Shown: positions 39,101 to 62,100, counted from the stretch's first letter. The stretch is DNA of 64,000 nucleotides from Hyaloraphidium curvatum (GCA_025558095.1 JAIVFI010000005.1:744001-808000), one strand, 5' to 3'. Numbers and translations are program-made. The notes: a model not told the origin generated them from the letters alone.

Positions 39101-40594
39101 TCACGACGGACACGCAATCTCGAGCGTGAGCACCACGCCCGATGATCTGAGGACCGACCACAGGCCCACTGCCACGGTGAACACGGCGATCAGGATCGCC
39201 CTCGCGGACCCCCAATCCGCCTCGATCCCCAGCACCTTTGCCCTGGCCTGATCCGCGGCGTACTTTTCCAAAAGCTCCGCATGCCACGCCAGGCTCTTCG
39301 CCGCCCGGGTGCCCGAGAGCCCGTCGGCGGTGGCGCGCGCGAGGAGCGCTGTGGCTTCGCGGGAGGCGCGGCGCAGGACAGTCGAGGTGCCCGAGACCTG
39401 GGCGTTGGCGGCGGCGACGGCGAGCAGTTCGCGGGCAAAGAAGTAGAGGAAGTAGAGGAGCGGGGTGAGCCAGCAGGCGGGGATGCAAGATCCGGCGACG
39501 ACGTTGGCGATGGCACCGGCAACGGGGAGCACGACGAAGCCGACAAAGAGCGCCCAGGAGACGCCGAGCACGGCGAATCGGTTGGTGCGGTAGGCGGCAA
39601 GGCGGTCGCAGAGGTCCTGGTAGGGCTCCGTGATCCGCAGTGCGGCTTCCGCGGCCTCGCGGTCGCGATCGGCGTCCCAGAGCGCTGCAAAGTGGCGCCT
39701 CAGCATGTCCGCCACTGCGTCCGAAACGGCCCTCACGTGGAGGCGCCGCGAGAGCTCCAGGGTGGGCAGCGAGGCAGAGACCAGAAGCAGGCTGGAAAAG
39801 ACCAGCATTATTGCGAACGAGACCGCGAGCAGGGACGCAAAAGTGGCGGGGACCGGCGTGGTCCAGGTGAAGGAGCGCAGGGTGATGAATTGGGTGTAGA
39901 TGCCGAAGAGAAGGTGCACGCCCATCAGCGCAAATCTGGCGAGGACGTCCAATAGACGGAGCAGGCCGGAGCGTCGAGGGAGGCCACCCGCGCAGGCTGG
40001 CTTGCCGCAGGGGCACGCCTCGTCACCGTCCACGTGACGGACCAACGGGTGCTCGGGCGCCTTCCCGGTCTCCACGTTCACAGCTTCCGCAGCAGCATTC
40101 TGATCTGGAGAGAAGTTCACGAGCCGCGCCCACCGCGCCAGCACGGCGTGCGGGTGGCCGCTGAAGTCATACTGCTTCGATCGAAAGTACCTGCCGCGGC
40201 CGGTGAGGCCCGAAACGGCACCCCACACATGCCAGGCGATGTAGATGGCCAGAAAAGCCACGGCAACGGCAAACTGCGTGGGCCCGAACAGTGGGATGCC
40301 GGAGCGGGGGATATATGCCGTGACGATGGCCCAGCTCGCGCCAAAGGTGACCATGCACGCCGCGAAGACGCCCCCGGTGTACAGCGGCGACAGCCTCAGT
40401 TGCAGACCGACGAGAACGCGCAATAGCGGCGACCCGAGGCCGCGGAGAAGCGCCGTCCTGTCCAGCCGAGGGGCCGCGTTGGCATCCTCGACTCGGCGCG
40501 CGCCCGCGTCCGGCAGCGTGAACAGGTGCGGTGGGACCGGCGGCGAGGCGGGAAACAGCGCGAGGCGCTCGTCGGCGTCGAAAATCGCGTCCAT
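39101..40594 (-). CDS. Multi-pass membrane protein, CPC-family copy 1 (intronless)
   Basis: Single exon, 497 residues, a member of a family with four copies in this window. About six to eight hydrophobic segments (FAVAVAFLAIYIAWHVW, LMGVHLLFGIYTQFITL, ATFASLLAVSFAIMLVF, ALFVGFVVLPVAGAIANVV, WLTPLLYFLYFFA, ILIAVFTVAVGLWSVL). A soluble loop carries CPCGKPACAGG at about residue 200, preceded by PLVRHVDGDEA. The C-terminus ends VGLWSVLRSSGVVLTLEIACPS, conserved among copies. The segment GSCIPACWLTPLLY aligns with SSCLP and GQCLP of copies 3 and 4, where an intron precedes it; here the intron is absent. Family function unknown. Confidence 0.75.
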   Translation of the reverse strand: MDAIFDADERLALFPASPPVPPHLFTLPDAGARRVEDANAAPRLDRTALLRGLGSPLLRVLVGLQLRLSPLYTGGVFAACMVTFGASWAIVTAYIPRSGIPLFGPTQFAVAVAFLAIYIAWHVWGAVSGLTGRGRYFRSKQYDFSGHPHAVLARWARLVNFSPDQNAAAEAVNVETGKAPEHPLVRHVDGDEACPCGKPACAGGLPRRSGLLRLLDVLARFALMGVHLLFGIYTQFITLRSFTWTTPVPATFASLLAVSFAIMLVFSSLLLVSASLPTLELSRRLHVRAVSDAVADMLRRHFAALWDADRDREAAEAALRITEPYQDLCDRLAAYRTNRFAVLGVSWALFVGFVVLPVAGAIANVVAGSCIPACWLTPLLYFLYFFARELLAVAAANAQVSGTSTVLRRASREATALLARATADGLSGTRAAKSLAWHAELLEKYAADQARAKVLGIEADWGSARAILIAVFTVAVGLWSVLRSSGVVLTLEIACPS

Positions 40595-40783
40595 TGGAGC
40601 TCGTTCTTCGGGATCCTGGAAGCTTCTAGTGGGCGGAAGTTTGCGATCCCTCTGCTGCTAAAACCGCCGCCGCAACTCGTCGACCGTCACAGAGCTGTGG
40701 AGCGCGAATTTTTGAGCTTCTCGACCGAGCTGTAAACGACGGCAATGTCCTGTTTGCGGGGTATCAGCGGATGCACGTCGGCT

Positions 40784-42702
40784 TCACCCTGCGCCTGTAC
40801 CAACGTGGCTTCCCTGGCTGCCGGGCAGGAATCCGACGATCTCGTCCATGCTGGTGTCCACGATGATGGTGCCGCTCTCGTAGCGCTGGAAGCCGCCGAC
40901 GGCGATGAGGAGGTACCTCCCGTCGTCGGTCATGCCCATGCTCTGCGTGTCGTGCACCACATAGCGGATCTCCTTGACGATCCTGAGCCTGGTGAGGTCG
41001 ACCACGGCAATCGAGGAGCGGGATTCCTTGGTCGACGGGTCTGCGTCCCCGTGGATGGGGTTGAGCACGGCGATGTAGACCTTGTTGGGGTAGATGGGGT
41101 GGAACGTCATGTGGAAGGGCGACGGGTACATGCCCTTCCACAGCGGGTCGCGGATCACGCCCAGGCGCTTCCACTTCTTGGGGTCGGGGTCCGACGAGTC
41201 GTAGACCGAGATGCCGTTGAGCTTGACGTTGGCCATGTTGAGGAAGAAGTGGCCGTCGGGCGAGAAGCCGAGCTCGTGGCTGGGCGTATCGACGCGGTAC
41301 AGCTCGATCTCCCAAGTGTCGTCGCCGACCTTTTGCACGGGGCGGTGCTCGAGGGTGTCCTCGTTGAAGGAGATGTACAGGTAGGGCTCCGCCGCATCGC
41401 TGGTCATGTCGTGGACCACGGCACCGCCGAGCATGCGCAGGATCTCGGCGGCCCACTTGCCCGTCGGGTGCCAAACAAAGCCGTCCGCGGCCACGAGCGA
41501 CTCCTTCTGGGGTCCGGGGATCAGGCCCTGCTCGATCTGGCCCTCGGCCATGGGCACCAGTTCCACGGTGATCTTGTTGCCCTTGGTGCCGAGGAGGTCG
41601 TACTTGCCCGTCTTGGGGTCCGGCCTGAGCTTGGTGATGCGAACGTTGCCGCCCTTGGCCTGGATGAGGATTGCCATAATGTCAAATTGTGAAGTGCTTG
41701 GGACTCGCGACTAACGACCTACGCACCCAGCAGTTTTTGAGCGACTTGCAGTTGTTTCCGATCCAATCATAGCGGAAGGACGCCTTGACTGTGCCGCTGT
41801 CCTTGTCGATCCATGCATTGACGTCCTTCTGGCCGTCGGAAACCGTGAACGACTTAGCGTCGTCGGGTTTGACGCAGACGTGCACGCCGAGGCCGAGTCC
41901 CGAGATGTCGCTGTAGTTCTTTGCGATAGACAGGCTGTTGCCGTCGAAATGCAGCAGGTAGAAGTTTGTGGCCTGCGGGATCGTGTCGGCGGTCCACTTG
42001 GTCGGGATGTTGTAGAGCAGCGTGTTGGCGCCGCCCTGGCACGAGTTGATCACGTCGAAGCCCTTGCGCGGGTTGGCCGACGGGAACGCCTGGATGTGGT
42101 GGGCGATGCAGTTTTCGTCTCCCCTGTGTTGGGGGAGTGCGGAAGTTAGAGGCTGGCCTCCGGATCGGACGGCAGCTGACCGACCAGTTCGAGTACCACA
42201 GCGACGCGAGAGTGAGGCCGCGCTTGAGATCGAGAACGTTGACGCCGAGGCCGAGTTTCGTGGGATAGACGACGAGCTGGTCGCCGAGGTCGAACCCATT
42301 CAACTTCATGGTGTAGTTGTCCCAGTTCCAGTCGTATCGCGGGATGTCATCGCCGTACTGCACCTGCAACGTTGTGCAACGTGTTTCAGGACTAGTTTGG
42401 CGATAGGTCAGCGCATGCGCCGGCCTCACCTCGGAACGGAACGCGGTCACGTCAACCACGCCGTCCGCGGGGGAACGCGTCTGCGGCGCCGAGGGCGAGC
42501 CGCGGCCGACCAACAGCAGTGCGAGATTGACAAATCCGAGAGCGGTCGACACCACGAGCAGGCCGAGGAGCAGCGCAGAGCGGTCAATGCGGCGGTTCAG
42601 GACCAGGGATTCGCCGGCGAGAGTGCGGCCAGACGCGCCGGACTCGTCCGAAACGCGCGAGAGCGGGTCGTCCTTGCCGAAAAGCGGTACGAAGTCGGCC
42701 AT
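40784..42702 (-). CDS. Membrane-anchored beta-propeller-like protein
   Basis: Three exons (42702-42185, 42123-41727, 41659-40784), 596 residues; splices rebuild YSNWGDENCIAHH and LKNCWAKGGNVRI. A short cytoplasmic N-terminus precedes one membrane span (ALLLGLLVVSTALGFVNLALLLV, about residues 41-63). The remainder is a chain of blade-like repeats: GLGVNVLDLKRGLTLASLWY, IAHHIQAFPSANPRKGFDVINSCQGG, GLGLGVHVCVKPDDAKSFTVSDGQ, HELGFSPDGHFFLNMANVKLNGISVYD, RSSIAVVDLTRLRIVKEIRYVV, DDGRYLLIAVGGFQRYESGTIIVD. These are YncE/quinoprotein-like propeller blades. The HH and H residues could bind metal or cofactor; no catalytic assignment. It sits between two copies of the CPC membrane family. Confidence 0.65.
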
Positions 42703-43126
42703 GGCGGCAGATCCGGACCTGAAAACGCGCCGAGGGCGGTCCCGGAGCTTGGGGTGCCAATACTCAGGGGCCCTGTGTCCCTGCGTCCGGAGCGTCCGAA
42801 GCTCCGGATACGGGCGGCCCAGCCGCCAAGCACCGGACGTCATTGGATTCGAAACGCACACAGTGGTGCTTTCGGCAGCCACATGCGAACATACATGAAT
42901 CTCCGTCTTTGAGGCATTTGGGATCGAAACCCTGTTGTTCTGATCTTCCGCAAGACGGCCTGCACAGGCCCGCCCTACAGAGCTAGAAGACGGGCAAAGG
43001 CCTGGAAGCTCCGCCGACAACAGTTCAACAGTGCTGCTGCTCAAACGTCTTTCCAATGTCACAGTATCATTGACAACCCTGCCCTTGACTGCGCGAGCTC
43101 CAGCTGCTGCTCAACCTCCAAGTCGC
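42703..43126. other. Intergenic, no gene seen
   Basis: 424 bp between the propeller gene start and the end of the membrane-family pseudogene. Presumed promoter of the propeller gene; no further feature recognised. Confidence 0.35.
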
Positions 43127-44180
43127 TCATGACGGACACGCAATCTCGAGCGTCAGCACCACGCCCGACGATCTGAGGACCGACCACAGGCCCACGGCGA
43201 TGGTGAACACGGCGATCAGGATCGCCCTGGCGGACCCCCAATTCGCCTCGATCCCCAGCACCTTTGCCCTGGCCTGATCCGCGGCGTACTTTTCCAAAAG
43301 CTCCGCATGCCACGCCAGGCTCTTTGCCGCGCGGGTGCCGGAGAGTCCGTCGGCGGCAGCGCGGGCGAGGAGCGCGGTGGCTTCGCGGGAGGCGCGGCGA
43401 AGGACGGCCGAGGTGCCCGAGACCTGGGCGTTGGCTGCAGCGACGGCGAGCAGTTCGCGGGCAAAGAAGTAGAGGAAGTAGAGGAGCGGGGTGAGCCAGC
43501 AGGCGGGGATGCAAGATCCGGCGACGACGTTGGCGATGGCACCGGCAACGGGGAGCACGACGAACAAAGAGCGCCCAGGAGACGCCGAGAACCGCGAATC
43601 GCTTCGTGCGATAGGCCGCGAGACGGTCGCAGAGGTCCTGATAGGGCTCCGTGATCCGCAGTGCGGCTTCCGCGGTCTCGCGGTCGCGATCGGCATCCCA
43701 GAGCGCGGCAAAGTGGCGCCGGAGCATGTCGGCTGCAGTATCCGAAACCGCCCGCACGTGAAGGCGCGCCGCGAAAGTTCCAGGGTAGGCAGCGAGGCAG
43801 AGACCAGCGACAGGCTGGAAAAGACCAGCATGGTTGCGTACGAGACCGCGACCAAGGACGCAAACGTGGCGGGGACCGGCGTCGTCCAGGTGAGGAGCGC
43901 AGGGTGATGAACTGCGTGTAGATGCCAAGAAATTGAAGCAAACACATCAAGGCAAACCGAGAACATACGTCCAGCAGGCGCAGTTGCCCCGAGCGTCTAG
44001 GGAGCCTGCCTGCACAGGTCTCACTGCCGCAGGGGCACGTATCGTCATTGTTCACGTGCCGGATCAGCGGGTGCTTAGACACCTTCCCGGCTTCCACATC
44101 AGGAGCCAGAGCGTCCACGAGCTGGGCCCAACGTGCCATAACCGCGTGAGGGTGACCGCTGAAGTCCTGCTGAGTGGACT
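43127..44180 (-). pseudogene. CPC membrane family copy 2, frameshifted and N-terminally truncated
   Basis: Very close to copy 1 at DNA level, but broken. It begins inside the family at QDFSGHPHAVMARWAQLV (about residue 145 of copy 1), so the first membrane spans are missing. It keeps CPCGSETCAGRLPRRSG and IYTQFITLRS, then shifts frame near 43900; WTTPVPATFASL continues in another frame; a second shift occurs near 43765 (LHVRAVSDTAADMLRRHF), and a third near 43565, where several residues (GF) are deleted before VVLPVAGAIANVV. The 3' third (VAAANAQVSGTSAVLRR to LEIACPS) is intact and almost identical to copy 1. Confidence 0.85.
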
Positions 44181-44184
44181 GAAA

Positions 44185-44640
44185 GGGAGGCGGGGAGGTC
44201 GGGGGGGTAGGGCGAGGAGCGGTCGGGGTGGCGCTCGGACAAGGTGGGGAACTTCGAGGCAGTCGTGTGGTGGAGCGGGGAGGGACCGAGGGTGCCCGTG
44301 CTGGGGGCGTTGGGGTCCCCCGAGCAGGTCTGTGAGTCCGAGAGCCGATGGAGGCAGGCAGCGCCCGTCAGTCTTTCTTCCGGCCCAGGCTTCCGCCCAC
44401 GGTAGTCCCACCTTGTCCGTAACGACGCTCGTCGACGGGTCCGACGACGCCGCGGGCATCGGGTTCGTCCCCGCCGGCATCCCCTCGGCGACCGACGCCG
44501 AGCCGCCCGTGTCCTTCTCCCCCTTGATGCGGACCAAGCTGCGGTAAAGGTGAGCGGAAGTACGGCGGAGGCTAACGGTGGGGCCCACGATTCTTTGCTG
44601 GCCTCGCTGGTCGTTGCGTTGCGTTTTGATTGGGGATGAC
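44185..44640 (-). pseudogene. Relic of the small hydrophilic protein gene (paralogue of 51920-52537)
   Basis: In the reverse direction it aligns with 51900-52360: VRIKGEKDTGGSASVAEG and GTNPMPAASSDPSTSVV match the second exon of the intact gene. The start codon is changed to ACG (GCAACGACCAGCGAGGCCAG against GCAATGACCAGC). The acceptor TTTAG is changed to TTTAC. Exon 3 similarity is frameshifted and ends at about 44185, where membrane-family sequence begins directly. Confidence 0.7.
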
Positions 44641-44779
44641 GTGGCGTCGGCGGAACCGACTAACCGGGGCGGTTGGGGCCCCGCGAAAAGAAGAATGCCC
44701 CTGGATGGAACGTATCCGGCCCAACGCTCCAGATTTATCGATTCCGAATGTGCAGAAGCAAGACAACAACGACGCGCCC

Positions 44780-45086
44780 TTATTTGACAGCCACCCATGT
44801 GCCGCTCTCGGCCGACCGCACCCAGTCCCTCGAATCCGGGTACCGGTAGTAGCTGTAGCGAGCGTTGCGCGAGCCGGAGTCACATGTCCTTCTCCGCCGC
44901 GGCATCCGAGCCCTCGTCGTACTTCCGCCCGACCGCGAAACCGCCGATCCACAGCCAGCCGACGAGGCGCCGCACCTCGCGCTCCACGCGGGGGAGCTCG
45001 GCGGCACGGATTCCGAACTCGGAAACGGAGAGCTTGAGCTTCTTGGTGCGGGGGAAGCCGTGGACCGGATATGCGAGTAGGGGCAT
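44780..45086 (-). CDS. Small single-span membrane protein, possibly mitochondrial
   Basis: Two exons (45086-44884, 44852-44780; 31-nt intron GTGACT...ACAG) join to 91 residues: MPLLAYPVHGFPRTKKLKLS, a short hydrophobic segment VRRLVGWLWIGGFAVGRKY, and a polar tail DIYYRYPDSRDWVRSAE. Without splicing the frame stops straight after EKDM. The small size, one weak membrane helix and Tyr/Trp-rich tail are like accessory subunits of mitochondrial complexes, but I do not recognise the family. The intron would be the shortest in the window, so a frameshift is an alternative. Confidence 0.45.
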
Positions 45087-45269
45087 CGCACGTGCTATCC
45101 GGGTCTTGCCGTGGTGGTGAAGAAAGTACACGCATTCATCAACAGCATGCCCGTCTGTCAGTTACCAGACGAGTTATAGGTGGTTTCGACCAGTCCCGGG
45201 CGCTGAGTAAGGGGCGCATCCTTGCGGATCCTCGGCACCACCAACACGGCCGACTGCCTCCCGCCCGAC

Positions 45270-46117
45270 ATGAGCGTAGTCATCACCGGCACCAACAAAG
45301 GAATCGGCCTGCAGCTCGCGGCCGACTACGCCGCCGCCGGCGAGCCCGTCGTGGCGGCGTGCCGCGCGGCATCGGACGCGCTGCTCGCTCTCGGGGTGCA
45401 CGTCGGTGCGTCTCCCGCGCGCTCGACGCGTCCGGCGTGAGGAATTGATCCCGGAGACAGTCGAAGGCGTCGATGTGGGGACGGACGCCGGCGCCCAGGT
45501 GCTCGCGGACGCGTTGGAGGCCAAGGGAGCGCCGGTGAAGCTCCTGGTCTGCAACGCCGGGACCGCGGAGGGGGACACCTTGGAGACGTTCGGCACGGAA
45601 GAGATGCTCCGCGAATACAACGTCAATGCCGTGGGTGCCATGCGCACCGTCAGGGCCGCGCTGCCGCAAATGGGCGAAGGCGGGAAGGTCGCGTTCATCA
45701 CCTCGAGGTTGGCAGACATGCTCGAAGGCCGGCGCGACGGGGCTAAGTAACAACGCGCTTTCCAGGGCCGGATCGATAGGGGACGGACCGTCGGGAGGCA
45801 ACTACGCGTACCGGGCGTCCAAGGCGGCAATGAACATGCTGGGCAGGAACCTCGCATCCGACCTCAAGGCCCGGGCGATCGCGGTCTGCGTCATCCACCC
45901 GGGCATGGCGCAGACCGACCTGCTGCCGGCGCACCTGAAGCACATGGGGATCCCGGTGGAGCGGTCGACGGCGGGGATAAGGAAACAGATCGAGAGGCTG
46001 GACCTGGAGACGACGGGGAACTTCTGGCACTTTGAGTCCGGCGACGTGGGTTGGCGTGTTCTTTTGAAGTGGGACACAGCTGACATACCTGCCTACATCC
46101 AGGTTTTGCCGTGGTGA
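45270..46117 (+). CDS. Short-chain dehydrogenase/reductase (sniffer/C-factor-like)
   Basis: Four exons (45270-45401, 45442-45707, 45766-46035 approx., last codons ending 46117). N-terminal Rossmann motif VVITGTNKGIGLQLA (TGxxxGIG), then LLVCNAGTAEGD (NAG), FITSR, the catalytic YRASK after splicing (RAGSIGDGPSGGNYAYRASKAAMNML), and IHPGMAQTD. The last intron (GTGGGTTGG to CAG) rebuilds FWHFESGDVLPW, the typical end of this SDR subgroup. An ATG 48 nt upstream in the same frame is possible. NAD(P)-dependent oxidoreductase of unknown substrate. Confidence 0.8.
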
Positions 46118-46172
46118 AGAAGCGGTATCTGGGGCGTTGTGCGACAGAGGCGGCATCCCGCTGCCCATTTCT

Positions 46173-47472: not shown

Positions 47473-47568
47473 CGCCGTTTCTGTAAATTCATTCGCGTCG
47501 CCCGCCGCCTCGTCGCCCGAGAGCATCCCGGGCGAAGGCGCGCACGTGCGTCTCAGAACCCCGGTGCG

Positions 47569-48459: not shown

Positions 48460-48479
48460 TTGCGCGCAGCGCGCCGACG

Positions 48480-48616
48480 TTCAGGCACCTTTCGAGTGAT
48501 GGTGCCCTTGTAGTGCGCCCCTCATCGTCACTTGGAACACCATGCTGACCGCTTCCCGATCATCGCATCCTATCCATTCACTCCTGGCCCCGAATCGGAG
48601 CGCCTTCGCTGGCGAC
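48480..48616. repeat. Direct repeat, copy A (about 135 bp)
   Basis: TTCAGGCACCTTTCGAGTGA begins copy A; copy B lies at 51613-51746 in the same orientation and starts TTCATGCACC. The two are about 90% identical by eye, including GCGCCCCTCATCGTCACTTG and ACCATGCTGACCGCTTCCCG, and both end near CGCCTTCGCTGGCGAC. Copy A starts 21 bp after the aminotransferase stop. Confidence 0.85.
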
Positions 48617-48800
48617 ACGGAGCTGCCTTTTTCGCGGCCTTCCGAACGAATTGCTTCGTGATCCCTGGAGTTCTCACGTGCTTTGGATGCGCCGGCGGCA
48701 GGTTCCATGATGGTGTATTGGCGATCGGGTCGGAATTTGGGAAGGCAACAAATCTACCCGCAGCCGGCTGGAACCGATTCGCACCCTCGTCATGGCCGCC
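48617..48800. other. Intergenic after repeat A
   Basis: Together with the repeat this makes a 341-bp gene-free stretch between the convergent aminotransferase and SDR genes. Nothing else recognised. Confidence 0.35.
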
Positions 48801-49883: not shown

Positions 49884-50011
49884 GGCTCGCGTGGTCTGTT
49901 CGCCGCGGGAGCGTTTGCGAGGAAACTGGCGGGGCGAAGGGAAACTGGGGGAGGACCATTCTCCACCGCCGCCGCGGTCAACACCGAAGACGCGTGGACG
50001 CGACCGCGACA

Positions 50012-51570
50012 ATGGAGACTGAGGAGGTGGCCATGACAATGGAGGCCTCGTCTGTCGACGGGCGACCCTCGCCCGAGGAGTTCCTCCTCCTGTTTCCCGT
50101 GTTCCCGGCAACGCCGCCGTCGCTGTCGGATGTTCCTGCGCCGACCGATCCGGCGTCCGAGCTGCGCGCCCTGAAGCCACTCACGCGTGATGCGGTGCTC
50201 GACGGGCTGGGTTCGGTCGGGGCGGGTTTCCTCGCCCTCGCGACGCGTCTGCAGCTTTCCGCAATGAACATTCCCGGCGGCTATGCCATTTTGCGGGGCC
50301 TTTTCTTCGCGGGATTCTACGTTCCCGTGGTGGCTTCCGCGTCCGTCTTTGACACGGGCGCCACATACGGCTCGCGGAACCTCATCGCTAGAACGGTCAT
50401 CTCCACCATCCTCATTTCGACGAACTCGTGGGGAAACGGACTCTTTTTCGCGTACCGGCAAAGCCTCCTCGCCTTCAACTCGGCAACGGCGACGGCACCG
50501 CGCGATCTCTCCTCACTTCCCTCTGCCGGCTTGGTGCGATGGATTGAGGCGACGCACCTTCCGGGCGAGCCACTTCCCCTGCTCTCCCACGTGTCCGGCG
50601 ATGCTCTCTGCCCTTGCGCCCTCACTAGCTGCGCTGGATCGGTGCCGACCGACGCGTCCCGCCTCCGTCTTCTCGAGATGGTGTGCAAATCGATCTTCCT
50701 CGCCTGCAATGTCCTCTTCTGGGGTTTCGTACCAATGTTCTCGCTTCCCGGGCAGTTCTGGACGACGCCTTGGACGGCCGTTTGCGGTGCGCTCTACATC
50801 GTTGCCGGATTCGTGTTCTCCTACTACCCGACCGTCTTGAGGTTCAACGGTTCCCCACCCCTCCTCCAGCTGTCGCGGAGGCTGCAAACCCGGGCTATGT
50901 CCCGCGCCCTGGCCTGCGCGCTGAAGAAGGTGCGGAAGGCGGCCCTGAATGGCGAGGACGCGGTGTTTCCGACCGTCTACATGGAGCTCTCCCGCGTCCT
51001 CACCGGCGTGTGGAAGAGCAGGGTCAACATGTTCAACTTCACGAAGCCGCTGGCCCTCTCCGTCATCTTTACCCTGGTCGCGATGGGTCTGACAATGGTA
51101 TGTTTCGGTGCATGCCTGCATTTGAGTCATTTGCGCACCGTGTGCTGACAAAGGAACCGATCCAGATCATCTCCTCTTGCCTCCCGGTAGCCTATCTCTC
51201 CTACGCCTTCTACATGGCTCTGCTTGCGCTCATCGACCTCGTCAATGTTGCAGCAAGCAACGCCGCCATTTCCTCCACGCTATCGCTGTATCTCGACGCA
51301 CAGAGGGAGCTTCGAGAACTTGTAGACGAAGCCTCGCAGAAAGGCACGCTCACCCCGACGATGCTACAGCGGATCTCCACGCACGATCGCATCCTTGCAT
51401 CCTATCTCGAGGCAGACAGGTACAAAGGAACGTTCTCCGGGTTCGTTGTCGACTACGGGATCGTCAGGACGGTGGTTGTTACCGTGATCACAATTGTGGT
51501 CGGACTCTGGAGCATCCTGCGTGGCTTGGGGGTCAGGCTCAGCGCAGGCGCTATCTGTCCAAGCAGTTGA
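50012..51570 (+). CDS. Multi-pass membrane protein, CPC-family copy 3
   Basis: Two exons (50012-51097, 51166-51570), 496 residues, almost the same length as copy 1. Hydrophobic spans include AILRGLFFAGFYVPVVA, MVCKSIFLACNVLFWGFV, AVCGALYIVAGFVF, ALSVIFTLVAMGLTM, VAYLSYAFYMALLALI and VVVTVITIVVGLWSIL. The loop motif is CPCALTSCAGSVP preceded by LLSHVSGDAL; the end is VGLWSILRGLGVRLSAGAICPS. The intron (phase 0, GTATGT donor) lies just before IISSCLP, and exon 2 is 405 nt, the same as in copy 4. The start could also be the GTG-preceded reading at 49994, but ATG 50012 is simpler. Confidence 0.8.
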
Positions 51571-51612
51571 CTTCTTCCGGCGAATAGAAATACGCCGCGA
51601 CTTGACGAGACA

Positions 51613-51746
51613 TTCATGCACCTTTCGAGTGATTGTGCCCTTGTAGTGCGCCCCTCATCGTCACTTGGAACACCATGCTGACCGCTTCCCGATCATCGCA
51701 TGCTATCCATTCAATCCCGGCCTCGCAAAGCGCCTTCGCTGGCGAC
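51613..51746. repeat. Direct repeat, copy B (about 135 bp)
   Basis: Partner of 48480-48616, same orientation, starting 43 bp after the stop of membrane-family copy 3. The two copies flank a 3-kb segment with the SDR gene and membrane copy 3. Confidence 0.85.
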
Positions 51747-51919
51747 GAGAGTGGATAGCATTGTGGCGGAAGTCCCCATACATGTCCACGTCGGCCGTCC
51801 GGAGCTCTTCATCAATCCATGTTCTCACATCTTCCGAGATGGATCGTTGGAAATCGCTCGCGTGCTCGGTCCAGCGTTGCCGCGAGAAGCCACATCATCC
51901 CCCAACAAGCACCATCGCA
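51747..51919. other. Leader/promoter of the small hydrophilic gene
   Basis: With repeat B this forms a 349-bp gene-free stretch after membrane copy 3. No coding feature recognised. Confidence 0.35.
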
Positions 51920-52537
51920 ATGACCAGCGAAGCCAGCAAAGAATCGTGGGTCCCACCGCCCGCCACCGCCGCACCTCGGCTCACCTTTAGCGCAGCTCCG
52001 TCCGCGTCAAGGGGGAGAAGGACACGGACTGCTCGGCGTCTGTCGCCGAGGCGATGCCGGCGGGGACGAACCCGATGCCCGTCGCGTCGTCGGACCCGTC
52101 GACGAGCGCTGTGGAGGACAAGGTGGGAGCGCGGCGCGGCGTCAGCGGCCCGAGCGTGCCTGACAATGGATGAACGTGCATTGACGCACCTCCCACAGAC
52201 CGGCTCGGGCGATCCCAACGCCCCCGGCACCGGCACCCTCGGCCCCTCCCCCCTCCAAGGCACCGCCGCCTCGCAGTTCCCCACCTTCTCCGAGCGGCAC
52301 CCCGACCGCGCCTCCCCGTACCCGCCCGAGCTCCCGACCTCCAAGGCCTCGGGCGAGCCGGAGCGGGCGCACGTGGAGCACGGTCCCGGGAACCTGGACG
52401 ACGAGGGGAGGAGCGATGATGGGACGATAAGGACGGGGTCGTGGAATCCCAAGGGGAAGGGGAAGGGGGAGGTGGCCGGTGCGGCGAGGGACGAGGACAA
52501 GGCGAACGAGGTGCCGGGGAGGAAGGGGAGCCTCTGA
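51920..52537 (+). CDS. Small hydrophilic, probably disordered protein
   Basis: Three exons (51920-51949, 51991-52122, 52199-52537) join to 166 residues. Exon 2 (VRVKGEKDTDCSASVAEAMP, AGTNPMPVASSDPSTSAVED) is supported by a relic copy at 44185-44640 in which the same frame is conserved. Exon 3 is rich in Gly, Pro, Ser, Asp and Glu (TGSGDPNAPGTGTLGPSPLQ, FPTFSERHPDRASPYPPELP, WNPKGKGKGEVAG) with no hydrophobic core, like stress-type disordered proteins. Not recognised. A 41-nt first intron is shorter than average here. Confidence 0.55.
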   Translation: MTSEASKESWVPPPATAAPRLTFSAAPSASRGRRTRTARRLSPRRCRRGRTRCPSRRRTRRRALWRTRWERGAASAARACLTMDERALTHLPQTGSGDPNAPGTGTLGPSPLQGTAASQFPTFSERHPDRASPYPPELPTSKASGEPERAHVEHGPGNLDDEGRSDDGTIRTGSWNPKGKGKGEVAGAARDEDKANEVPGRKGSL

Positions 52538-55221: not shown

Positions 55222-55411
55222 GTGGGAGGGCGCCTGAGGCCAGTTTCGCGGCGGAGCTTTGTCTTGATTGTATTGGCCACTATGAACGGTAGGAAGCGGC
55301 GTTGCTTTTGCATTCAGGAGCGATTATTCTGTAGGCAGAGGACTGATGGAACTTGAAATCGATTCAGCTTGATCACATTGGAAGCTGTCGCCGTCCGCTT
55401 CTGGCGCCCAA

Positions 55412-56449
55412 TCACAACTTCGTGTCCGCCTCGGGCCACAGGTCCAGCCCCAGCAGCTTCCTACCCAATGCCGTCAGCTCCGCCGTCTTCCCCTCCCTCT
55501 CCTCCTTGCCCCTCGCGTCTTTGCGCACCCAAGGCGCCTCGAGAGGCTGCCTCGCACTCCACGCTGCAACCCTCGCGGCACGAAGACGCTCCCTCCGCTC
55601 CAGTTCCCGCGGCGCGGGGGCCATGAACACGTACATAGCCATCCGCGGGCGCCCTGGGTCGGCAACGGCGCCCGAGGGGAGAACACAGCGGGACAGATTG
55701 CGCCCGTTGCCGTGGAACAGCAGCCGGCTCCAGATGATCAGGTCCCCGGCTTTGGTCGCGATCGGCACCGTCTTTGTCCGCGACATGTCGGGCCGCGGCT
55801 CGGCGGGGTCCGCGCGGATCCAGTTCCGCAGGATGGCCGTGTGCCCGGGGGCGCAGACGAAGCCGCCCATGTCCTCGTCCGTGTCCGAGAGCGAAAGGAC
55901 GCCCTGGACCGAGAACGGCATCCCGCGGAGGCACTTGCGCAGGTCCCTGGGCAGGTCCCAGTGCGCGAAGCCTTTGTCGTCGTCGAACTCGGGGCGGTCG
56001 GGGCGCACGGGGAGCTTGACGTTGACGCGGTCGATAGAGCACCAGAGCGTGTCGGTGCCGAAGAGGTCCGAGAAGGCCGCGTGGACTCGAGGGTGCTGCC
56101 TGATGTCCCAAAGTTGCTGCGATTGGTAAAGTTCGACCATGCCGTTCCGCTTGGGATCCAGAGGCGGGCGGTACCAGTCTTCGGGACTCGAAGCGTCCAT
56201 TTCGAGGAAAGACCAGACGCTCCGCACGAGCCGGTCCAGCAGCTCCATAGGCACCGCGTTCCGCACGATCATGTAGCCATTTTCCACGAAAAACTGGAGG
56301 TCCTCGGGGGAGAGCACTTTGAGGGGGGGGCGCGAAGCTTCGGGGAGATACAGGTACGGCGGGACGGTGGGGTCGCACGAGGGCGCGGCAACGAGCTCCG
56401 GGATGCCCTGCGTGTCGAGATACGCGAGCTCCGCCTCGCTGAACGACAT
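55412..56449 (-). CDS. Phytanoyl-CoA dioxygenase (PhyH) family protein
   Basis: Single exon, 345 residues. Fe(II)/2-oxoglutarate oxygenase features: N-terminal EDLQFFVENGYMIVRNAVP (PhyH start), GFAHWDLP with the HxD iron ligands (HWD), GGFVCAPGHT, GDLIIWSRLLFHGNGRN with the distal histidine, and arginine further on (RPRMAMYVF) for 2-oxoglutarate. PhyH enzymes hydroxylate varied small molecules. The end DTKL is not a clear peroxisomal signal. Intronless. Confidence 0.85.
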   Translation of the reverse strand: MSFSEAELAYLDTQGIPELVAAPSCDPTVPPYLYLPEASRPPLKVLSPEDLQFFVENGYMIVRNAVPMELLDRLVRSVWSFLEMDASSPEDWYRPPLDPKRNGMVELYQSQQLWDIRQHPRVHAAFSDLFGTDTLWCSIDRVNVKLPVRPDRPEFDDDKGFAHWDLPRDLRKCLRGMPFSVQGVLSLSDTDEDMGGFVCAPGHTAILRNWIRADPAEPRPDMSRTKTVPIATKAGDLIIWSRLLFHGNGRNLSRCVLPSGAVADPGRPRMAMYVFMAPAPRELERRERLRAARVAAWSARQPLEAPWVRKDARGKEEREGKTAELTALGRKLLGLDLWPEADTKL

Positions 56450-56872
56450 TTTGTGCGATTTAGTGGGGTGCAAACGGGACTGGGAGACAATGTGAAGCGA
56501 CAAAGTCAAAGACGGACATCACCGTTTGCACAGGAAGATCTTCACCACCGCGAGCGAGACGCGGCACATTCGAAGGGGATGCAAACATGGATCAAAACGT
56601 GACTTATGGGACACGGCGGTTGCGATAAGGGGCCAGTTTTTTGGAAACAGTGTGCCACCGATTACACCCAACGAGCACGGGGATCCGGGGCTGGCCAAAC
56701 AGTGGATGGGCGATGCTCAGGCATCGGCGGGTCCAATCCTGGATGGTGGAAAAGGTTAGCAAGATCGGCCGGAAGGGTCGGTCAGCGGGACTCACTGCGA
56801 TCAGGAGCCATCGCCGTAATCCCACGTCAAGAAAGGACGTGAAACAACCGCATCGCGCGGGAAGACGCGTCT
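56450..56872. other. Intergenic, no gene seen
   Basis: 423 bp between the PhyH gene start and the glyoxalase gene end. It may hold the last intron and stop of the glyoxalase gene (acceptor GATCGCAG at about 56795, directly followed by TGA). Confidence 0.4.
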
Positions 56873-57359
56873 TTAGCCACAAGCCACCCGAGCACTGACG
56901 CGTTTCCGTACCTTGCAGACGTTGAACTTGTTGCCCTCGGGGTCCTTCGCGTAGAACGCGTAGAACGCCTGCGGCCCCTCTGGGCCGCGCAGACCCGGCT
57001 TGCCCTCGTCCGTGGCGCCATTCTCCATCGCAATCTTGTATATTTCGTCGACCAGCTTGCGGGAAGGCGCCGCGAGGGCCAGCATCCACCCGTTACCGGG
57101 CGCGTGGGGTTTCCCATTCTCGGGGGTGTTGATTCCACAGACGAGGCCCGATGCCCCCATGTACATCATGCCGCGTCCGTTCTCGCCTATGGAGGGGCGG
57201 GATTCGGTGAGCGCGCGCTTGGGGCGACGAGTTTGGCGCGCTCGGAGTCATACCGTAGGCGAAGCCCTGCGTCACGCCGAGCGGGGCCAATACCTTGTCC
57301 CAGAAGGCCAAGGCCTTGGGAAGGTCGTTGGTGCCGATCGTGGTGTAGGCGACGGACAT
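56873..57359 (-). CDS. Glyoxalase/VOC-fold protein
   Basis: Two exons (57359-57254, 57186-56873), 139 residues. Starts SVAYTTIGTNDLPKALAFWDKVLAPLGV, the first VOC unit; exon 2 gives GRGMMYMGASGLVCGI, NGWMLALAAPSRKLVDEIYKIAMENGATDEGKPGLR and AFYAFYAKDPEGNKFNVC. This is the small VOC protein group frequent in bacteria and fungi (lactoylglutathione lyase-like), where the E/D ligands at GNKF-type ends are partly lost, so catalysis is uncertain. The final RKRVSARVACG may be intron read-through; splicing at GTACGG would end the protein at NVCK. Confidence 0.75.
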
Positions 57360-57434
57360 CGTGGCGTTCAGGCGGCGATGGAAGGGGACGCGGGTGCTGT
57401 AAAGTTGCTAGGGGTTTACCGCAATGCCGTTTGA

Positions 57435-58754
57435 AGACTCGCAGAGCATGGGAGCAGCAAGGAGGCGGAGGGCGTGCCGCCGTCGCCGAGCTTCGGCAGC
57501 CTGCCGCACGAGCTCCTCTGTGCCGTGCTCGCGAGCGGCCGTCTCGCATTCGCCGACGTGTTCTTCGCGCGCTTCGTCTCGCGCGTACTTCGCGATGCCG
57601 CCAACGACGTGCTCGTCTTGCGCGTACGTCGTGCGCTGCTTGTCGATCGTGATTCGCGGGCCGTGGCAGCGGCCGTGCAGCTGGTCCGGGCGGGCGCAAA
57701 GCGCCGCGCTGGCGTGGACGGCCGCGAAATCCTGCGCGCCGAAAGCGTTGGAAACCTGCTGCGGAGGGCCGGCGTGCAGCTGGATTTGTTCTCCGCCATG
57801 GAGGTCCTCGTCGAGCTATTCGAGGCGCGAGGAGAGGCCGGCTCGGCCCTGGAGGCGATGGGGGTGTCGGCCGCCTCGCTCCGTACTTTCGTGGATTACC
57901 TAGCTCTGCGGAGACTGTTTCCTAGTACGGACCACGGGCTGGACATGCTGCACGCCACGCATCTGCCGACGCCGGACCTGGTGAAGGCCGTGAAGCTGGC
58001 GAGGGAGCTCGCGTTCGAGGACCGCTGGCACATCATCCACCAACTGCGGCACATCAGTCCCGACGATGCAGAGGACTTCTTCCTAGATGCTCAGAACAAT
58101 GATGTGCGGCGCGCCGGGATCCCACCCGGCGATCACGTACAGCGCGCGTTTGCGGTCTTGGAGCGTTCCTTCAATCCGACCAAGAAGGCCTTCGACATGA
58201 TCCTGAGATCGCCGTGGCCTCCACAAGACCGCGGTCGGCTTCTCGCTCTTTTGTCTAAAGCCGTACCAGAGGTTTCCATTCTCCTCGTCGGTTACCTTCG
58301 CCAGCTCCTGTACCCGCCACCACCCATGACCCGCGAGCAGGCCTGCGACCTGTTCTTCGGCATGACCTCGGAACTCGGCCTCAGGCCGATCGACTTCGTG
58401 CCCCGGCTCCTCAGCGGCGCCGTCTGGCCGGGGGACATGCCGATCCAGGTCTGGGACCTCCTGACCGGGCAACGCCCCGGCCCGGCTGACATGTACCGCC
58501 TCGTGGAGGACCTCATCTTCGGGGCCCCATGTTGCGAAAAGGCCGAGCGGTTCGTGCGCGAGACGGCGGAGCTGCCGTGGGGAAAGGCGGTGCACGGATG
58601 GGCCTGGGCGGTGGTGCCGCAGCGGCAGCGCGAACTCGCGGCCATGCTCGGGGCCGTGCCGGGGGCCAGGGAGCGCCTGGATTGGCTCATGCGGGAGTAC
58701 CGCACGCCGGTGCCGGACTGGCTCAGAGATCCTCGAGCGACGTATCGGCAATAG
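57435..58754 (+). CDS. F-box-like helical protein; start uncertain
   Basis: An open frame of at least 426 residues (57474-58754) with an F-box-like start: SFGSLPHELLCAVLASGRLAFADVFFARFVSRVLRDAAND. The rest is helical with ankyrin- or HEAT-like spacing (VGNLLRRAGVQLDLFS, LVKAVKLARELAFEDRWHII, VPEVSILLVGYLRQLLYPP). No ATG lies in frame upstream before a stop at 57432, so the first exon must come from elsewhere, perhaps ATG 57424 or 57448 through a very short intron ending at TTCGGCAG (57503). Convergent with the F-box gene at 58816-60170 (61 bp between stops). Confidence 0.55.
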   Translation, partial: RLAEHGSSKEAEGVPPSPSFGSLPHELLCAVLASGRLAFADVFFARFVSRVLRDAANDVLVLRVRRALLVDRDSRAVAAAVQLVRAGAKRRAGVDGREILRAESVGNLLRRAGVQLDLFSAMEVLVELFEARGEAGSALEAMGVSAASLRTFVDYLALRRLFPSTDHGLDMLHATHLPTPDLVKAVKLARELAFEDRWHIIHQLRHISPDDAEDFFLDAQNNDVRRAGIPPGDHVQRAFAVLERSFNPTKKAFDMILRSPWPPQDRGRLLALLSKAVPEVSILLVGYLRQLLYPPPPMTREQACDLFFGMTSELGLRPIDFVPRLLSGAVWPGDMPIQVWDLLTGQRPGPADMYRLVEDLIFGAPCCEKAERFVRETAELPWGKAVHGWAWAVVPQRQRELAAMLGAVPGARERLDWLMREYRTPVPDWLRDPRATYRQ

Positions 58755-58815
58755 AGGTCTTCTCTTTTGCGCAGATGGCAACACACTGCGACTGCGCCCC
58801 CAAGCGTGTCGCTCT

Positions 58816-60170
58816 CTAAGTGTCCGACTCGTCCGAATCATCGCCGTCAGGCAGGTCCGCGTCTCTTTGTTCACCCCTCCGCGCCAGTACGTGACGGTCG
58901 CGCCCGGCAGTGACTCCCAAAAGCGCATCTCCCGCTTCAGCGCCCTCAGGAACGCCTTCCTCGGGCGTTCCCCGTCCTCGTCTTCTTCGGAGCAGAGGAG
59001 GCTCAGAACGAGGCGGATTTTCCGTCCCGTGAGCGTGGCGGCTATTTCATCCAGAAGCGAGGCAGGCCGCCCAATGACCGTGAGCGTAGAGGTTCGGAGC
59101 TCCTCAAGGTTGCGGGGTAGGCCGATGAGAAGGTGGTGCTCCACGACGATCTGGCCGAGGACGAGCTTGCGCAGCGAGTCCAGGCCCACAAGCATCCGCC
59201 ATTCCGCCTCTGATGGAGCTGCCAAGCACTCGCTGTCCTCGAACTGATCGATGGCCTTCGGACTGAACCCTTCCAGAGCAAAAGGAAGCCACAGGTCCGG
59301 AAGGTAGCTGTACGTCCACGTGTGCATCTTCTCAACGAAAACCCGGGGCAGCATTTCGCCCAAGCCACCGTTCCGCAGGTCCGACAGCCGCCACAGCCCG
59401 CAGTCGACCGATTTCAGGGCCGGACATGCGTTGGCGACGGCGCGAAACAGGGTGCGGTTGGGCGTTCCCACGAATGCGAAATGTTTTAGCCGCGGAAACC
59501 GCATCGAAAGGTTGCGGTAGTCTCCGTCGTCCTGCTTCGCGTCCCAGATCTGAACCCGCAGCCGTGCAAGGTTCCTCGTTGCAAGGTCTCCAATGATCCA
59601 CCGTAGATCTTCCAGCGAATGGAACGAGAACGAGGCGTCCTGCACGGATTCTCAGGCCCGCACCAGACCCCTGAGTGCGTCATGGAAGTCGTAGTGCCAG
59701 CAGGTGAAATCGCGGACCAGGGTCCGCACGAACGCGAATCTGTTGCCGTCGTAGCTAGAACACCATCGGCATGCGAACCGTTCGACGGCGGAAGTACTGG
59801 GGCAGAACATGTCACGGAGGTCGAGCTCGAGGTGGAAGAGCGGTGTCACGAGGTCGCGGTACGCCTTGCAGGCCAGCATCATGCGGAGCAGGGTGGGAGA
59901 ACGCGGCGCAAAGTACTCGGCGACCCTCAGAATGAGCTCAGGTGGCAGCGATGGGACGTTTGCGGCGACGGAATCCGAATGATGCTCGGCCGACGCGACC
60001 GTCCCGCGCTCCGCCTGCGCCAGCCGCTCATGGAGGGACACGACCGTGGCGAGTAGCGAAGATATTTCGGCGCGGAGCCCGTCGTTCTCGGCCCGAAGGA
60101 GCTCGTTTTCGGCCGCAAGCGAGGTCATTTCTGGAGCGGAGTTGCAGGGGCGGCCGTCCCGGGAAGTCAT
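58816..60170 (-). CDS. F-box/LRR-like protein with N-terminal coiled coil; internal TGA
   Basis: From ATG 60170: a coiled coil (LAAENELLRAENDGLRAEISSL), an F-box-like LPPELILRVAEYFAPRSPTLLRMMLACKAYRDLVTPLFH, then LRR-like strands (RWIIGDLATRNLARLRVQIWD, RFPRLKHFAFVG, CPALKSVDCGLW, LVGLDSLRKLVLGQIVV). At about 59656 an in-frame TGA interrupts the reading (ALRGLVRA, stop, ESVQDASFSF); a 24-nt GTGCGG...CAG or a 78-nt GTCCGC...CAG intron would remove it. Near the 3' end a frame change gives an acidic tail DADLPDGDDSDESDT stopping at 58816. The exact gene model is therefore uncertain. Confidence 0.6.
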
Positions 60171-60525
60171 TTCGCCTCACCTCGGGCTGGACGAAACTGG
60201 ACGGCATCTCCAACGAACCGTGGCAGCCTTCCTCTTTTCAGCTCGGAATCCTAAACACGGTTGCGGTAAGGAACCGCGATTCTGGATGTTTCGCCGTGCG
60301 AAACCAGATCCCGTCTATGTACACATGTATCCATCTCCGTTGAACCTGGATGGAACTGGACGCAGTCTAGGTCAAGCCAACGAGGTTGTTCATGTTTTCA
60401 TGTCACCATCAATCGTCCAATTGCGGTAAGGGACCGCGCCCCTCGACCTCTCGTCCCGCCCAGCCCGAGCGGTCTGGCCGGCTTCCTCCTCGGCCAGCGG
60501 AGGTCCCACCGCGGCTGCCCGCAGG
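60171..60525. other. Intergenic with an 18-bp repeated hairpin element
   Basis: TTGCGGTAAGGAACCGCG at 60261 and TTGCGGTAAGGGACCGCG at 60421 are direct repeats with one mismatch; each contains GCGGT...ACCGC inverted arms able to form a small hairpin. A GGA(C/T)G-AACTGGA motif also recurs (60187, 60345). Possibly promoter elements of the F-box gene. Confidence 0.5.
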
Positions 60526-62100
60526 CTACGCCGGACAGTAGCTCTCCCACACCACCCCCACACCCACCCCCCTGAGCACGCCCCACACGCCGAACGTGAC
60601 GGTGACCACCCCGAGGAATAGCGCGCGGATGCTCCCGAACCCGACCTCGAACGCCAGGAACTTCGCACCCCCTCCGCCCCGCGCGAGCCGGGCGAGCACC
60701 CCCGCATGGGCCTGCACGTGGCCCAGCGCCGCCGTCGAAGCCGGCGGACTGCAGGCCGGCTGCGCGGCGAGGAGGTCCCGCGAGAGCGAGTCCAGCGCCG
60801 AGGCGTGCAGCGCGCACAGGGAGGCGCCCTCGGCGTTGAGCACCGCGACGTTCCAGAGGTCCATGAAGAGGATACCGAGCAGCCATGCCAGCACGACGAT
60901 GGTCCCTGCGGGGAGGCACTGGCCCTCGATCTGCGGCGGGCGGGGAGGAAGCGGGTGAGAAGGCGGTGCGGGCGGGCAGCAATCAAGGACGAAGGTACGC
61001 ACAGCGTTGGCGGCGCCGCAGAGCACGAACAAAGCGATGTTGCGGAGCGTGGTGCTCGGGTGGAAGGATGCAGTGGTGCCCGCGCGGCACTGCGCGGCCA
61101 GGAGGGGACCCAGCGTCGCGTACTCGGATGCATCGGGCAGGTCCGCCTTACCGGCCAGCACGGCACGGCAGCTCGCCAGCATCCGGGAGAGCGTGATGGT
61201 CACGGCGCGAAGTCGCAGCCTCGAGGTGAGGCGAAGCGACGATGGTGTCGCCTCGATGCCGGTGGCCCCCGTGGCGAACAGCAGTGAGGGCACCTGCACG
61301 GCGAGAAAGACGGCCAAAAGAGCAGCAGACCAGGGCTGCGACCATGTGCGCGACGCGAGTGTCACGACTGGCGTCCAGCACATGGCGAGGAAGCCGGTGA
61401 CCCTCATGAGCACGAACCAAGCCATGGCAGAGAGCCGCTCCCGCGGGATCCGGGAAAGCAGAGCACCTCCGCAAGTAGATTGCGGGCACGGGCACGCCGG
61501 ATCGTCCGCGTCGTGTGTCAGCAGACTTGACGACTCGCCCAGCCCGCCGAGTTCCTCGTTGGCCCCCTTGGTGCGGTTGCCGACGAGCGCGGCCCACCGC
61601 ACTATGCCCGCCAAGCTTCCATTGAGGACGAGATGTCTGGCAAGAGAAGCCCTTCCGGCTAGCACCGCCGGCGAAGGAAAAAGAACCGCGAGCGGGTTGC
61701 GCTCCTTGTCACGGCGCGCATAGAAGACCGCGTAATTGTACACGGCGATCATGTACCCCAGCATTGCCGTGACGGTTCCGACGGCGAGGCTCGCGGTTGT
61801 GAAGCCGCCTGTCCCGGCCGCAATAACGGCGCCGACCACGAGGCAGCCGCACGCTCCGGCGGCGTGCAGCAGCAGCAGCGTCGGTGCGGCGACGGCGAAG
61901 TCAAAAAGGGCAAGTTGGAATCGCACGAGTCCCGTGAGGCGTCCGAACGGCGCGAGGGCCTTGGCCGCGTCGCCCGCCGTCACGTCCGCCCTCGCGTCTC
62001 CCGCGGGGTCCACCGCAGGCAACGCGTCGAACGGCGTCCCTCGCGACGGCAACGCCACCGGGAGCAGCGCCGCGTACTCCAGGCTGTCAAAAAGCGGCAT
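60526..62100 (-). CDS. Multi-pass membrane protein, CPC-family copy 4
   Basis: Two exons (62100-61003, 60930-60526), 500 residues. The 72-nt intron (GTGCGT...CCGCAG) is in frame without a stop, so it would be missed by simple reading; it lies just before IEGQCLP at the same alignment position and phase as in copy 3, and exon 2 is 405 nt in both. Spans include ACGCLVVGAVIAAGTGGF, SLAVGTVTAMLGYMIAVYNYAVFY, MAWFVLMRVTGFLAMCWTPVV, ALLAVFLAVQVPSLLF and ALFLGVVTVTFGVWGVL. The loop motif is CPCPQSTCGGALLSRIPRE after LLTHDADDPA. The end is FGVWGVLRGVGVGVVWESYCPA. Confidence 0.8.
   Translation of the reverse strand: MPLFDSLEYAALLPVALPSRGTPFDALPAVDPAGDARADVTAGDAAKALAPFGRLTGLVRFQLALFDFAVAAPTLLLLHAAGACGCLVVGAVIAAGTGGFTTASLAVGTVTAMLGYMIAVYNYAVFYARRDKERNPLAVLFPSPAVLAGRASLARHLVLNGSLAGIVRWAALVGNRTKGANEELGGLGESSSLLTHDADDPACPCPQSTCGGALLSRIPRERLSAMAWFVLMRVTGFLAMCWTPVVTLASRTWSQPWSAALLAVFLAVQVPSLLFATGATGIEATPSSLRLTSRLRLRAVTITLSRMLASCRAVLAGKADLPDASEYATLGPLLAAQCRAGTTASFHPSTTLRNIALFVLCGAANAVRTFVLDCCPPAPPSHPLPPRPPQIEGQCLPAGTIVVLAWLLGILFMDLWNVAVLNAEGASLCALHASALDSLSRDLLAAQPACSPPASTAALGHVQAHAGVLARLARGGGGAKFLAFEVGFGSIRALFLGVVTVTFGVWGVLRGVGVGVVWESYCPA

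What the first reader, a model, noticed from the sequence alone, without database searches (positions are those of the whole stretch)
39101..62100. Undescribed membrane-protein family with CPCx4CxG loop, four copies
Copies at 39101-40594, 43127-44180 (broken), 50012-51570 and 60526-62100 share length near 497 residues, a loop CPC-x4-C-x-G preceded by a His/Asp stretch, and a VG(L/V)W(S/G)(V/I)LR...CP end. The Cys loop could bind metal. Copies range from almost identical (1 and 2) to highly diverged (4), so the family is both old and still expanding.
Basis: seen in the sequence. Interest (0 to 1): 0.72.

Follow-up and report, generated by a model that had tools for sequence, protein, structure and literature searches.

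The report
Fungal insect-taste-receptor-like channel expansion
A fungus-like genome carries roughly 250-340 divergent copies of a seven-helix membrane protein that most resembles insect taste and smell receptor channels and always carries a probable metal-binding site on its inner side, hinting at a very large chemical-sensing repertoire outside animals.

Summary
The four loci encode one family: spliced lengths of the intact copies are 497, 496 and 500 residues, and the Cys loop aligns in all. But the family is far larger than four. A codon pattern for DxxCPCx4C hits the 31.9 Mb eukaryotic genome 257 times against 4 for its reversed control, so about 253 copies, or about 340 after correcting for variants. 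In 54 members (median identity 28%) His187, Cys194, Cys196 and Cys201 are invariant. An extracellular pair, Cys370/Cys495, is almost invariant, and close paralogues have dN/dS 0.23-0.41. There is no Pfam or PDB sequence match. Topology is seven-helix, N-terminus inside: intracellular loops about 79/72/68 residues, extracellular 5/9/6. This, the helix plan and a fold search point to the insect gustatory/odorant receptor channel superfamily (7TMIC/GRL). All 13 PDB chains with Z of 8 or more for the copy-1 model are insect receptors. The model is low-confidence (pLDDT 48), the copy-4 model did not repeat the match, and no sequence homology is detectable, so membership is probable, not proven. Best reading: a large lineage-specific radiation of ligand-gated channel subunits with an intracellular HC3 metal site. 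Published chytrid members are single-copy.

The parts
39101..40594 (-). copy 1 (W1): intact single-exon gene, 497 aa, 7 TM
   Evidence: open frame; family HMM E=1.3e-164; closest tree kin L012, 42% identity
39992..40036 (-). copy 1 HC3 site H187-x6-C194-x-C196-x4-C201 in intracellular loop 1
   Evidence: H and 3 C invariant in 54/54 members
43127..44185 (-). copy 2 (W2): truncated, frameshifted pseudogene, 85% nt identity to copy 1
   Evidence: three frames carry successive parts; similarity ends at 44185
44186..44648 (-). repeat abutting the truncated 5' end of copy 2
   Evidence: 80% identical to 51886-52342 in inverted orientation
50012..51097 (+). copy 3 (W3) exon 1, residues 1-362
   Evidence: family HMM match; splice site GTATGT at 51098
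51098..51165 (+). copy 3 intron, 68 nt, with TGCTGAC branch-like site
   Evidence: sequence; same HMM position 365-375 as breaks in many paralogues
51166..51570 (+). copy 3 exon 2, 134 residues plus stop
   Evidence: family HMM match
50588..50632 (+). copy 3 HC3 site
61003..62100 (-). copy 4 (W4) exon 1
   Evidence: family HMM E=1.4e-121
60931..61002 (-). copy 4 in-frame intron, 72 nt (GTGCGT...CCGCAG)
   Evidence: sequence; 24 extra residues only here in the alignment
60526..60930 (-). copy 4 exon 2
61471..61515 (-). copy 4 HC3 site

Best explanation
The genes encode a very large, lineage-specific family of seven-transmembrane ion channel subunits of the insect gustatory/odorant receptor (7TMIC, GRL) kind, in what is probably a fungus. 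Likely mechanism, by analogy with BmGr9 and Orco: four subunits assemble through an intracellular anchor domain built from the cytosolic ends of S4, S5, S6 and S7a. S7b lines a central cation pore. The variable helices S1-S6 form a ligand pocket open to the outside, and ligand binding opens the pore. Family-specific additions: a roughly 79-residue intracellular loop 1 with an invariant His-Cys3 site that probably holds Zn2+ (or an Fe-S cluster) and stabilises or modulates the anchor; and a probable disulfide between extracellular loop 3 (C370) and the C-terminal tail (C495). Shown: copy number, invariant residues, 7TM pattern with long cytosolic loops, purifying selection, conserved S7b. Inferred: the fold (low-confidence model), homology, tetramer, channel activity, ligands, metal identity.
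For: Hydropathy over 32 members gives seven helices. Intracellular loops are 79/72/68 residues (median) and extracellular 5/9/6/12. K+R per 100 residues is 11.5-13.5 inside against 2.5-3.2 in EL2, EL3 and the C-terminus, so N-in/C-out, opposite to GPCRs. These match most criteria used for unicellular GRLs (PMC7746228). Copy-1 model helices S4 248-308, S5 312-366, S6 373-423, S7a 430-451, S7b 461-484 parallel BmGr9's S4 178-229, S5 287-339, S6 345-389, S7a 395-409, S7b 424-444 (PMC11100771). Foldseek against the PDB: ranks 1-3 are BmGr9 (E 0.031, prob 0.98) and Gr64a. VIA: all 13 chains with Z>=8, of 722 aligned, are insect ORs or GRs; Orco 6c70 Z 8.6, 303 residues, rmsd 7.3. S7b is by far the most conserved TM (1.6 bits against 2.7-3.0 for S1-S6), with R465 invariant and T473 94%; the threonine of the GR TY motif forms a pore ring in BmGr9. 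Copy number. dN/dS 0.23-0.41 in pairs with dS 0.28-0.78.
Against: The copy-1 model has mean pLDDT 47.7 and pTM 0.39, because only window sequences could be used for its alignment. Low TM-scores (0.26-0.34) and Z under 10 can reflect a shared helical arrangement. The copy-4 model (pLDDT 42.9) gave no insect-receptor match at all. No Pfam 7tm_6, 7tm_7 or DUF3537 match in 27 members; the 7tm_7 model finds nothing in the genome; no PDB sequence match; the family C-terminal profile scores GR/Orco ends no better than shuffles. The TYhhhhhQF motif is absent except perhaps the T. The C-terminus runs about 24 residues past that T, longer than in GRs.
Confidence: 0.72

Rival explanations
1. A fungal-lineage 7TM receptor or transporter family unrelated to 7TMICs, whose resemblance to insect receptors comes only from a common arrangement of long helices in a weak model.
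For: No sequence-level link to any GR/OR; the copy-4 model did not repeat the match; Z<10.
Against: The top ranks of the copy-1 search are exclusively insect receptors, out of 350,542 PDB chains; N-in topology with long cytosolic S4-S5 and S6-S7 segments and a conserved S7b is the specific 7TMIC plan.
Confidence: 0.22
2. The family spreads as or with a mobile element (selfish multi-copy ORF) rather than as a host receptor repertoire.
For: Hundreds of copies; single-exon copies beside copies with one or two introns, as retroposition would give; a repeat abuts truncated copy 2.
Against: Most copies are 25-35% identical with purifying selection, introns at two conserved positions across the tree, local tandem clustering (55 of 98 within 20 kb of another against 26% expected), and no transposase-like domain.
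Confidence: 0.04
3. The HC3 site is a redox-active [2Fe-2S] cluster (mitoNEET-like ligand set) that makes the channels redox sensors, rather than a structural zinc site.
For: Three Cys and one His including a CxC pair, invariant in 54 of 54, as in the CDGSH ligand set (own knowledge); D191 98% conserved.
Against: Order and spacing (H-x6-C-x-C-x4-C) differ from CDGSH (C-x-C-x8-C-x3-H, own knowledge) and no Pfam Fe-S model matches; structural Zn is the commoner occupant of HC3 loops.
Confidence: 0.15

Closest known systems
Insect gustatory/odorant receptors (7TMIC; BmGr9, Gr43a, Gr64a, Orco, MhOr5)
   Same: Seven TM, N-inside, long cytosolic S4-S5 and S6-S7 segments, very short extracellular loops, split S7a/S7b, S7b most conserved; best fold-search matches
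   Different: No sequence similarity detectable; no TYhhhhhQF motif beyond a conserved T; C-terminus longer after S7; long intracellular loop 1 with invariant HC3 site; C370-C495 extracellular Cys pair
GRLs of chytrid fungi (Spizellomyces SpunGRL1, SpalGRL1; PMC7746228)
   Same: Fungal 7TM, N-in, GR-like proteins in which only one of four TM7-motif positions is conserved
   Different: Single copy per genome in the published survey, against about 250-340 here; direct sequence comparison could not be made (sequences not held)
Plant DUF3537 and animal PHTF 7TMICs (PMC9998090)
   Same: Remote 7TMICs recognised by topology and fold
   Different: Small families (DUF3537 4-12 members); no Pfam DUF3537 match here
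CDGSH/mitoNEET iron-sulfur domain
   Same: Three Cys and one His with a CxC pair
   Different: Order and spacing of ligands differ; no Pfam match

Membership tests
7TMIC / gustatory receptor-like (GRL) | Seven TM helices with intracellular N-terminus | tested here: met
   hydropathy and positive-inside counts over 32-54 members; no dedicated topology predictor was available
7TMIC / gustatory receptor-like (GRL) | Length about 350-500 aa and intracellular loops longer than extracellular loops (Benton 2020 criteria) | tested here: met
   about 500 aa; loops 79/72/68 inside against 5/9/6/12 outside
7TMIC / gustatory receptor-like (GRL) | OR/GR-like tertiary fold (anchor domain of S4-S5-S6-S7a, S7b pore helix) | tested here: inconclusive
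   copy-1 low-confidence model: top PDB matches all insect receptors, Z up to 9.4; below the Z>10 used by Benton and Himmel; copy-4 model no match
7TMIC / gustatory receptor-like (GRL) | TM7 motif TYhhhhhQF (animal GRs; weakly kept in unicellular GRLs) | tested here: not met
   only a T (T473, 94%) is conserved in S7b; Y, Q, F not. Published fungal GRLs also keep only one of four positions, so for unicellular members this feature is not treated as required
7TMIC / gustatory receptor-like (GRL) | Significant sequence match to Pfam 7tm_6/7tm_7/DUF3537 | tested here: not met
   27 members, none; 7tm_7 model finds nothing in genome
7TMIC / gustatory receptor-like (GRL) | Ligand-gated cation channel activity as tetramer | not testable with these tools
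   needs expression and recording
GPCR | Extracellular N-terminus, intracellular C-terminus | tested here: not met
   charge distribution gives the opposite orientation; no GPCR Pfam match
Known transporter family | Match to any transporter model | tested here: not met
   no Pfam match in 27 members, no PDB sequence match
CDGSH iron-sulfur domain | C-x-C-x2-(S/T)-x3-P-x-C-D-G-(S/A/T)-H | tested here: not met
   ligand order H-x6-C-x-C-x4-C; no Pfam match

The most novel reading that the evidence does not exclude
A fungus has independently evolved an insect-scale chemosensory repertoire (about 250-340 receptor channels) from the insect taste/smell receptor superfamily, with an added intracellular metal or redox site in every subunit that gates or tunes the channels, so that external chemicals and internal metal/redox state are read by one protein.
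Probability: 0.25. Interest if true: 0.9.

Novelty: new variant of a known kind. Interest (0 to 1): 0.72.

Why it matters
Large chemoreceptor repertoires of the gustatory/odorant receptor superfamily are known from invertebrates; in the survey read here, fungi had one GRL each and only in two chytrids. A radiation of some 250-340 genes, perhaps 2-3% of the genes of a 32 Mb genome (my estimate, assuming about 10,000-12,000 genes), would show that this channel scaffold was recruited for diversified sensing outside animals, and would give hundreds of natural variants for mapping pocket, pore and anchor. The invariant intracellular HC3 site is a feature not reported in the insect receptor paper read here and is directly testable. 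It also shows a family invisible to Pfam that occupies a sizeable part of a genome.

Tried and rejected
Pfam scans of the copies and of 27 members: nothing. Profile search of PDB sequences: only a weak VMA21 hit, E 0.38. 7tm_7 model over the whole genome: nothing. C-terminal profile against GR/Orco ends: no better than shuffles except a non-significant Orco score (15 of 500 shuffles as high). A second structure prediction with copy 4 as query: pLDDT 42.9, no OR/GR match; insect receptors were therefore not seen in that list. Relatives in viral contigs and prokaryote genomes by single-protein patterns: none; alignment-based scans not possible. rRNA search for species identification failed twice. 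Genome loci were not given to the structure predictor because its stated rule admits only window proteins and loci from other tools. Considered and rejected: GPCR (orientation), transporter (no match), CDGSH domain (ligand order).

Full report
WHAT IS THERE. The window lies in a 31.9 Mb, 55-contig eukaryotic genome (G000:C5:744001-808000) with 61-69% G+C. It carries fungal-type chitin synthases: three loci match the PF01644 model, and the best of them matches the PDB entry Chitin synthase 1 at E 2e-62. The genome also has the second-largest subunits of eukaryotic RNA polymerases (three loci; the best matches RPC2 of Pol III). I therefore call it probably fungal; the species was not identified (rRNA searches failed).

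The four loci encode one family. Copy 1 (39101-40594, -) is an intact 497-aa frame. Copy 3 (50012-51570, +) is one gene with a 68-nt GT-AG intron at 51098-51165, spliced 496 aa. Copy 4 (60526-62100, -) has a 72-nt intron at the same place (60931-61002) that happens to be in frame, spliced 500 aa. Copy 2 (43127-44185, -) is a pseudogene: its parts lie in three frames, about 134 N-terminal residues are missing, and its 85% similarity to copy 1 stops exactly where a repeat begins. The Cys loop and the VG(L/V)W..LR...C end align in all four.

COPY NUMBER. The codon pattern for CPCx4CxG hits 288 places against 33 for the reversed control; the stricter DxxCPCx4C hits 257 against 4. That is about 253 copies, a lower bound, because 26% of members found by protein search alone lack the strict pattern (12 of 46); correcting gives about 340. 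Pseudogenes are included. Protein searches with copies 1 and 4 each reached the scoring limit (86 and 82 candidates scored). Copies lie on at least 39 contigs, with local clustering: 55 of 98 sites on the fully listed contigs are within 20 kb of another, against 26% expected at random.

EVOLUTION. Among 54 members from fetched loci, median pairwise identity is 28% and the closest pair is 81%. Close pairs have dN/dS 0.23-0.41, so the proteins are under purifying selection. Gene structure varies between no, one and two introns, at two recurring positions, profile positions about 255-262 and 365-375. The intron-bearing state clusters on the tree but needs several changes, consistent with repeated intron loss.

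ANATOMY. Averaged hydropathy shows seven helices. Loops on one side are long and basic (IL1 79, IL2 72, IL3 68 residues median; 11.5-13.5 K+R per 100), on the other side short and poor in charge (5, 9, 6, C-terminus 12; 2.5-3.2 K+R per 100 in EL2, EL3 and the C-terminus). The N-terminus is therefore inside and the C-terminus outside. Invariant in 54 of 54 members: H187, C194, C196, C201 (IL1), R288 (IL2), R465 (start of S7b). Nearly so: D191 98%, R284 96%, N397 98%, C370 93%, T473 94%, C495 96%. C370 and C495 are both on the extracellular side and are both present in 50 of 54 members; two of the four exceptions lack both. I infer a disulfide outside and a metal site (HC3) inside. S7b is the most conserved transmembrane helix (1.63 bits of entropy against 2.7-3.0 for S1-S6).

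WHAT IT RESEMBLES. No Pfam model and no PDB sequence matches. The anatomy is that of the insect gustatory/odorant receptor superfamily (7TMIC): N-in, long cytosolic S4-S5 and S6-S7 parts, tiny extracellular loops, conserved S7. AlphaFold2 on copy 1, with only window sequences allowed in the alignment (4 rows), gave a low-confidence model (pLDDT 47.7). Its best part (pLDDT 59-81 at residues 291-330 and 401-450) is the cytosolic helix bundle, and its helices S4 248-308, S5 312-366, S6 373-423, S7a 430-451, S7b 461-484 (S4 and S5 each with a short break) closely parallel BmGr9's S4 178-229, S5 287-339, S6 345-389, S7a 395-409, S7b 424-444 (PMC11100771). Foldseek's first three PDB matches are BmGr9 and Gr64a (E 0.031-0.14). 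Realignment with VIA puts insect ORs and GRs at all 13 places with Z of 8 or more among 722 chains, Orco included (Z 8.6, rmsd 7.3, 303 residues). Such exclusive enrichment is hard to get by accident, but Z is below the threshold of 10 used in the published screen (PMC9998090), and the model from copy 4 (pLDDT 42.9) found no such match. At sequence level the family's C-terminal profile does not recognise GR or Orco ends beyond shuffles, and the TYhhhhhQF motif is reduced to one T. Published chytrid GRLs likewise keep one of four positions (PMC7746228). I put the chance that this is a 7TMIC family at about 0.72.

HOW IT PROBABLY WORKS. Inferred from BmGr9: tetramer held by the anchor domain, S7b pore with the T473 ring, ligand pocket between S1-S6 opening outward, gating by S7b movement. 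The HC3 site sits in a long IL1 between S2 and S3. In BmGr9 the cytosolic extension of S2 packs on S4 and S5 of the anchor, so a metal site here could rigidify or modulate the link between pocket and anchor. Zn is the default; a redox cluster is possible. Hundreds of diverged, mostly intact copies under purifying selection fit a repertoire of receptors with different ligands. A selfish element is unlikely.

KNOWN OR NEW. GR-like proteins were reported as single genes in two chytrids, and a later structural screen (Himmel et al. 2023, Curr Biol, known to me only from memory and from citation) reported many 7TMICs in unicellular eukaryotes and prokaryotes. I found no report of a fungal expansion or of an HC3 loop in the papers searched, but Himmel et al. 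was not readable here, so prior description cannot be excluded. Verdict: new variant of a known kind, probable.

FUNCTION CONTEXT. A search for the ciliary protein IFT46 found nothing and IFT57 only a sub-threshold match, a weak hint that the organism may lack a flagellum; the zoospore-chemotaxis idea is therefore not assumed.

Noticed in passing
window 18695-19744(-), 57435-58751(+), 59655-60176(-): F-box-like proteins (PF12937): strong at 18695, weaker at 59655, marginal at 57435; several in one window, possibly another expanded family of this genome.
   Followed up: no
window 44186-44648 and 51886-52342: 463-nt repeat, 80% identical, inverted orientation; one copy abuts the truncated end of pseudogene copy 2.
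   Followed up: partly
window 48476-48616 and 51609-51746: Direct repeat of about 140 nt, 91% identical, one copy just downstream of copy 3.
   Followed up: no
window 23220-23628, 30960-31347, 31416-31716, 31818-32118: Duplicated ORF pair sharing a TVEGR...LLQQL start (23164-23754 and 30886-32460), 78% nt, plus an internal 301-nt repeat at 89%; no Pfam match for either ORF.
   Followed up: no
L003-L007, L043-L069 (paralogues): Family members have zero, one or two introns at two recurring positions; single-exon copies predominate, suggesting repeated intron loss or retroposition.
   Followed up: partly
G000 C10:808992 and C10:813173; C1:703987 and C1:716685: Pairs in opposite orientation about 4-13 kb apart: the first pair has identical motif DNA, the second are 81% identical proteins, suggesting inverted duplication as a route of expansion.
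   Followed up: no
G000: IFT46 model finds nothing and IFT57 only a sub-threshold match; possible absence of a cilium in this organism; a miss across introns is possible.
   Followed up: no
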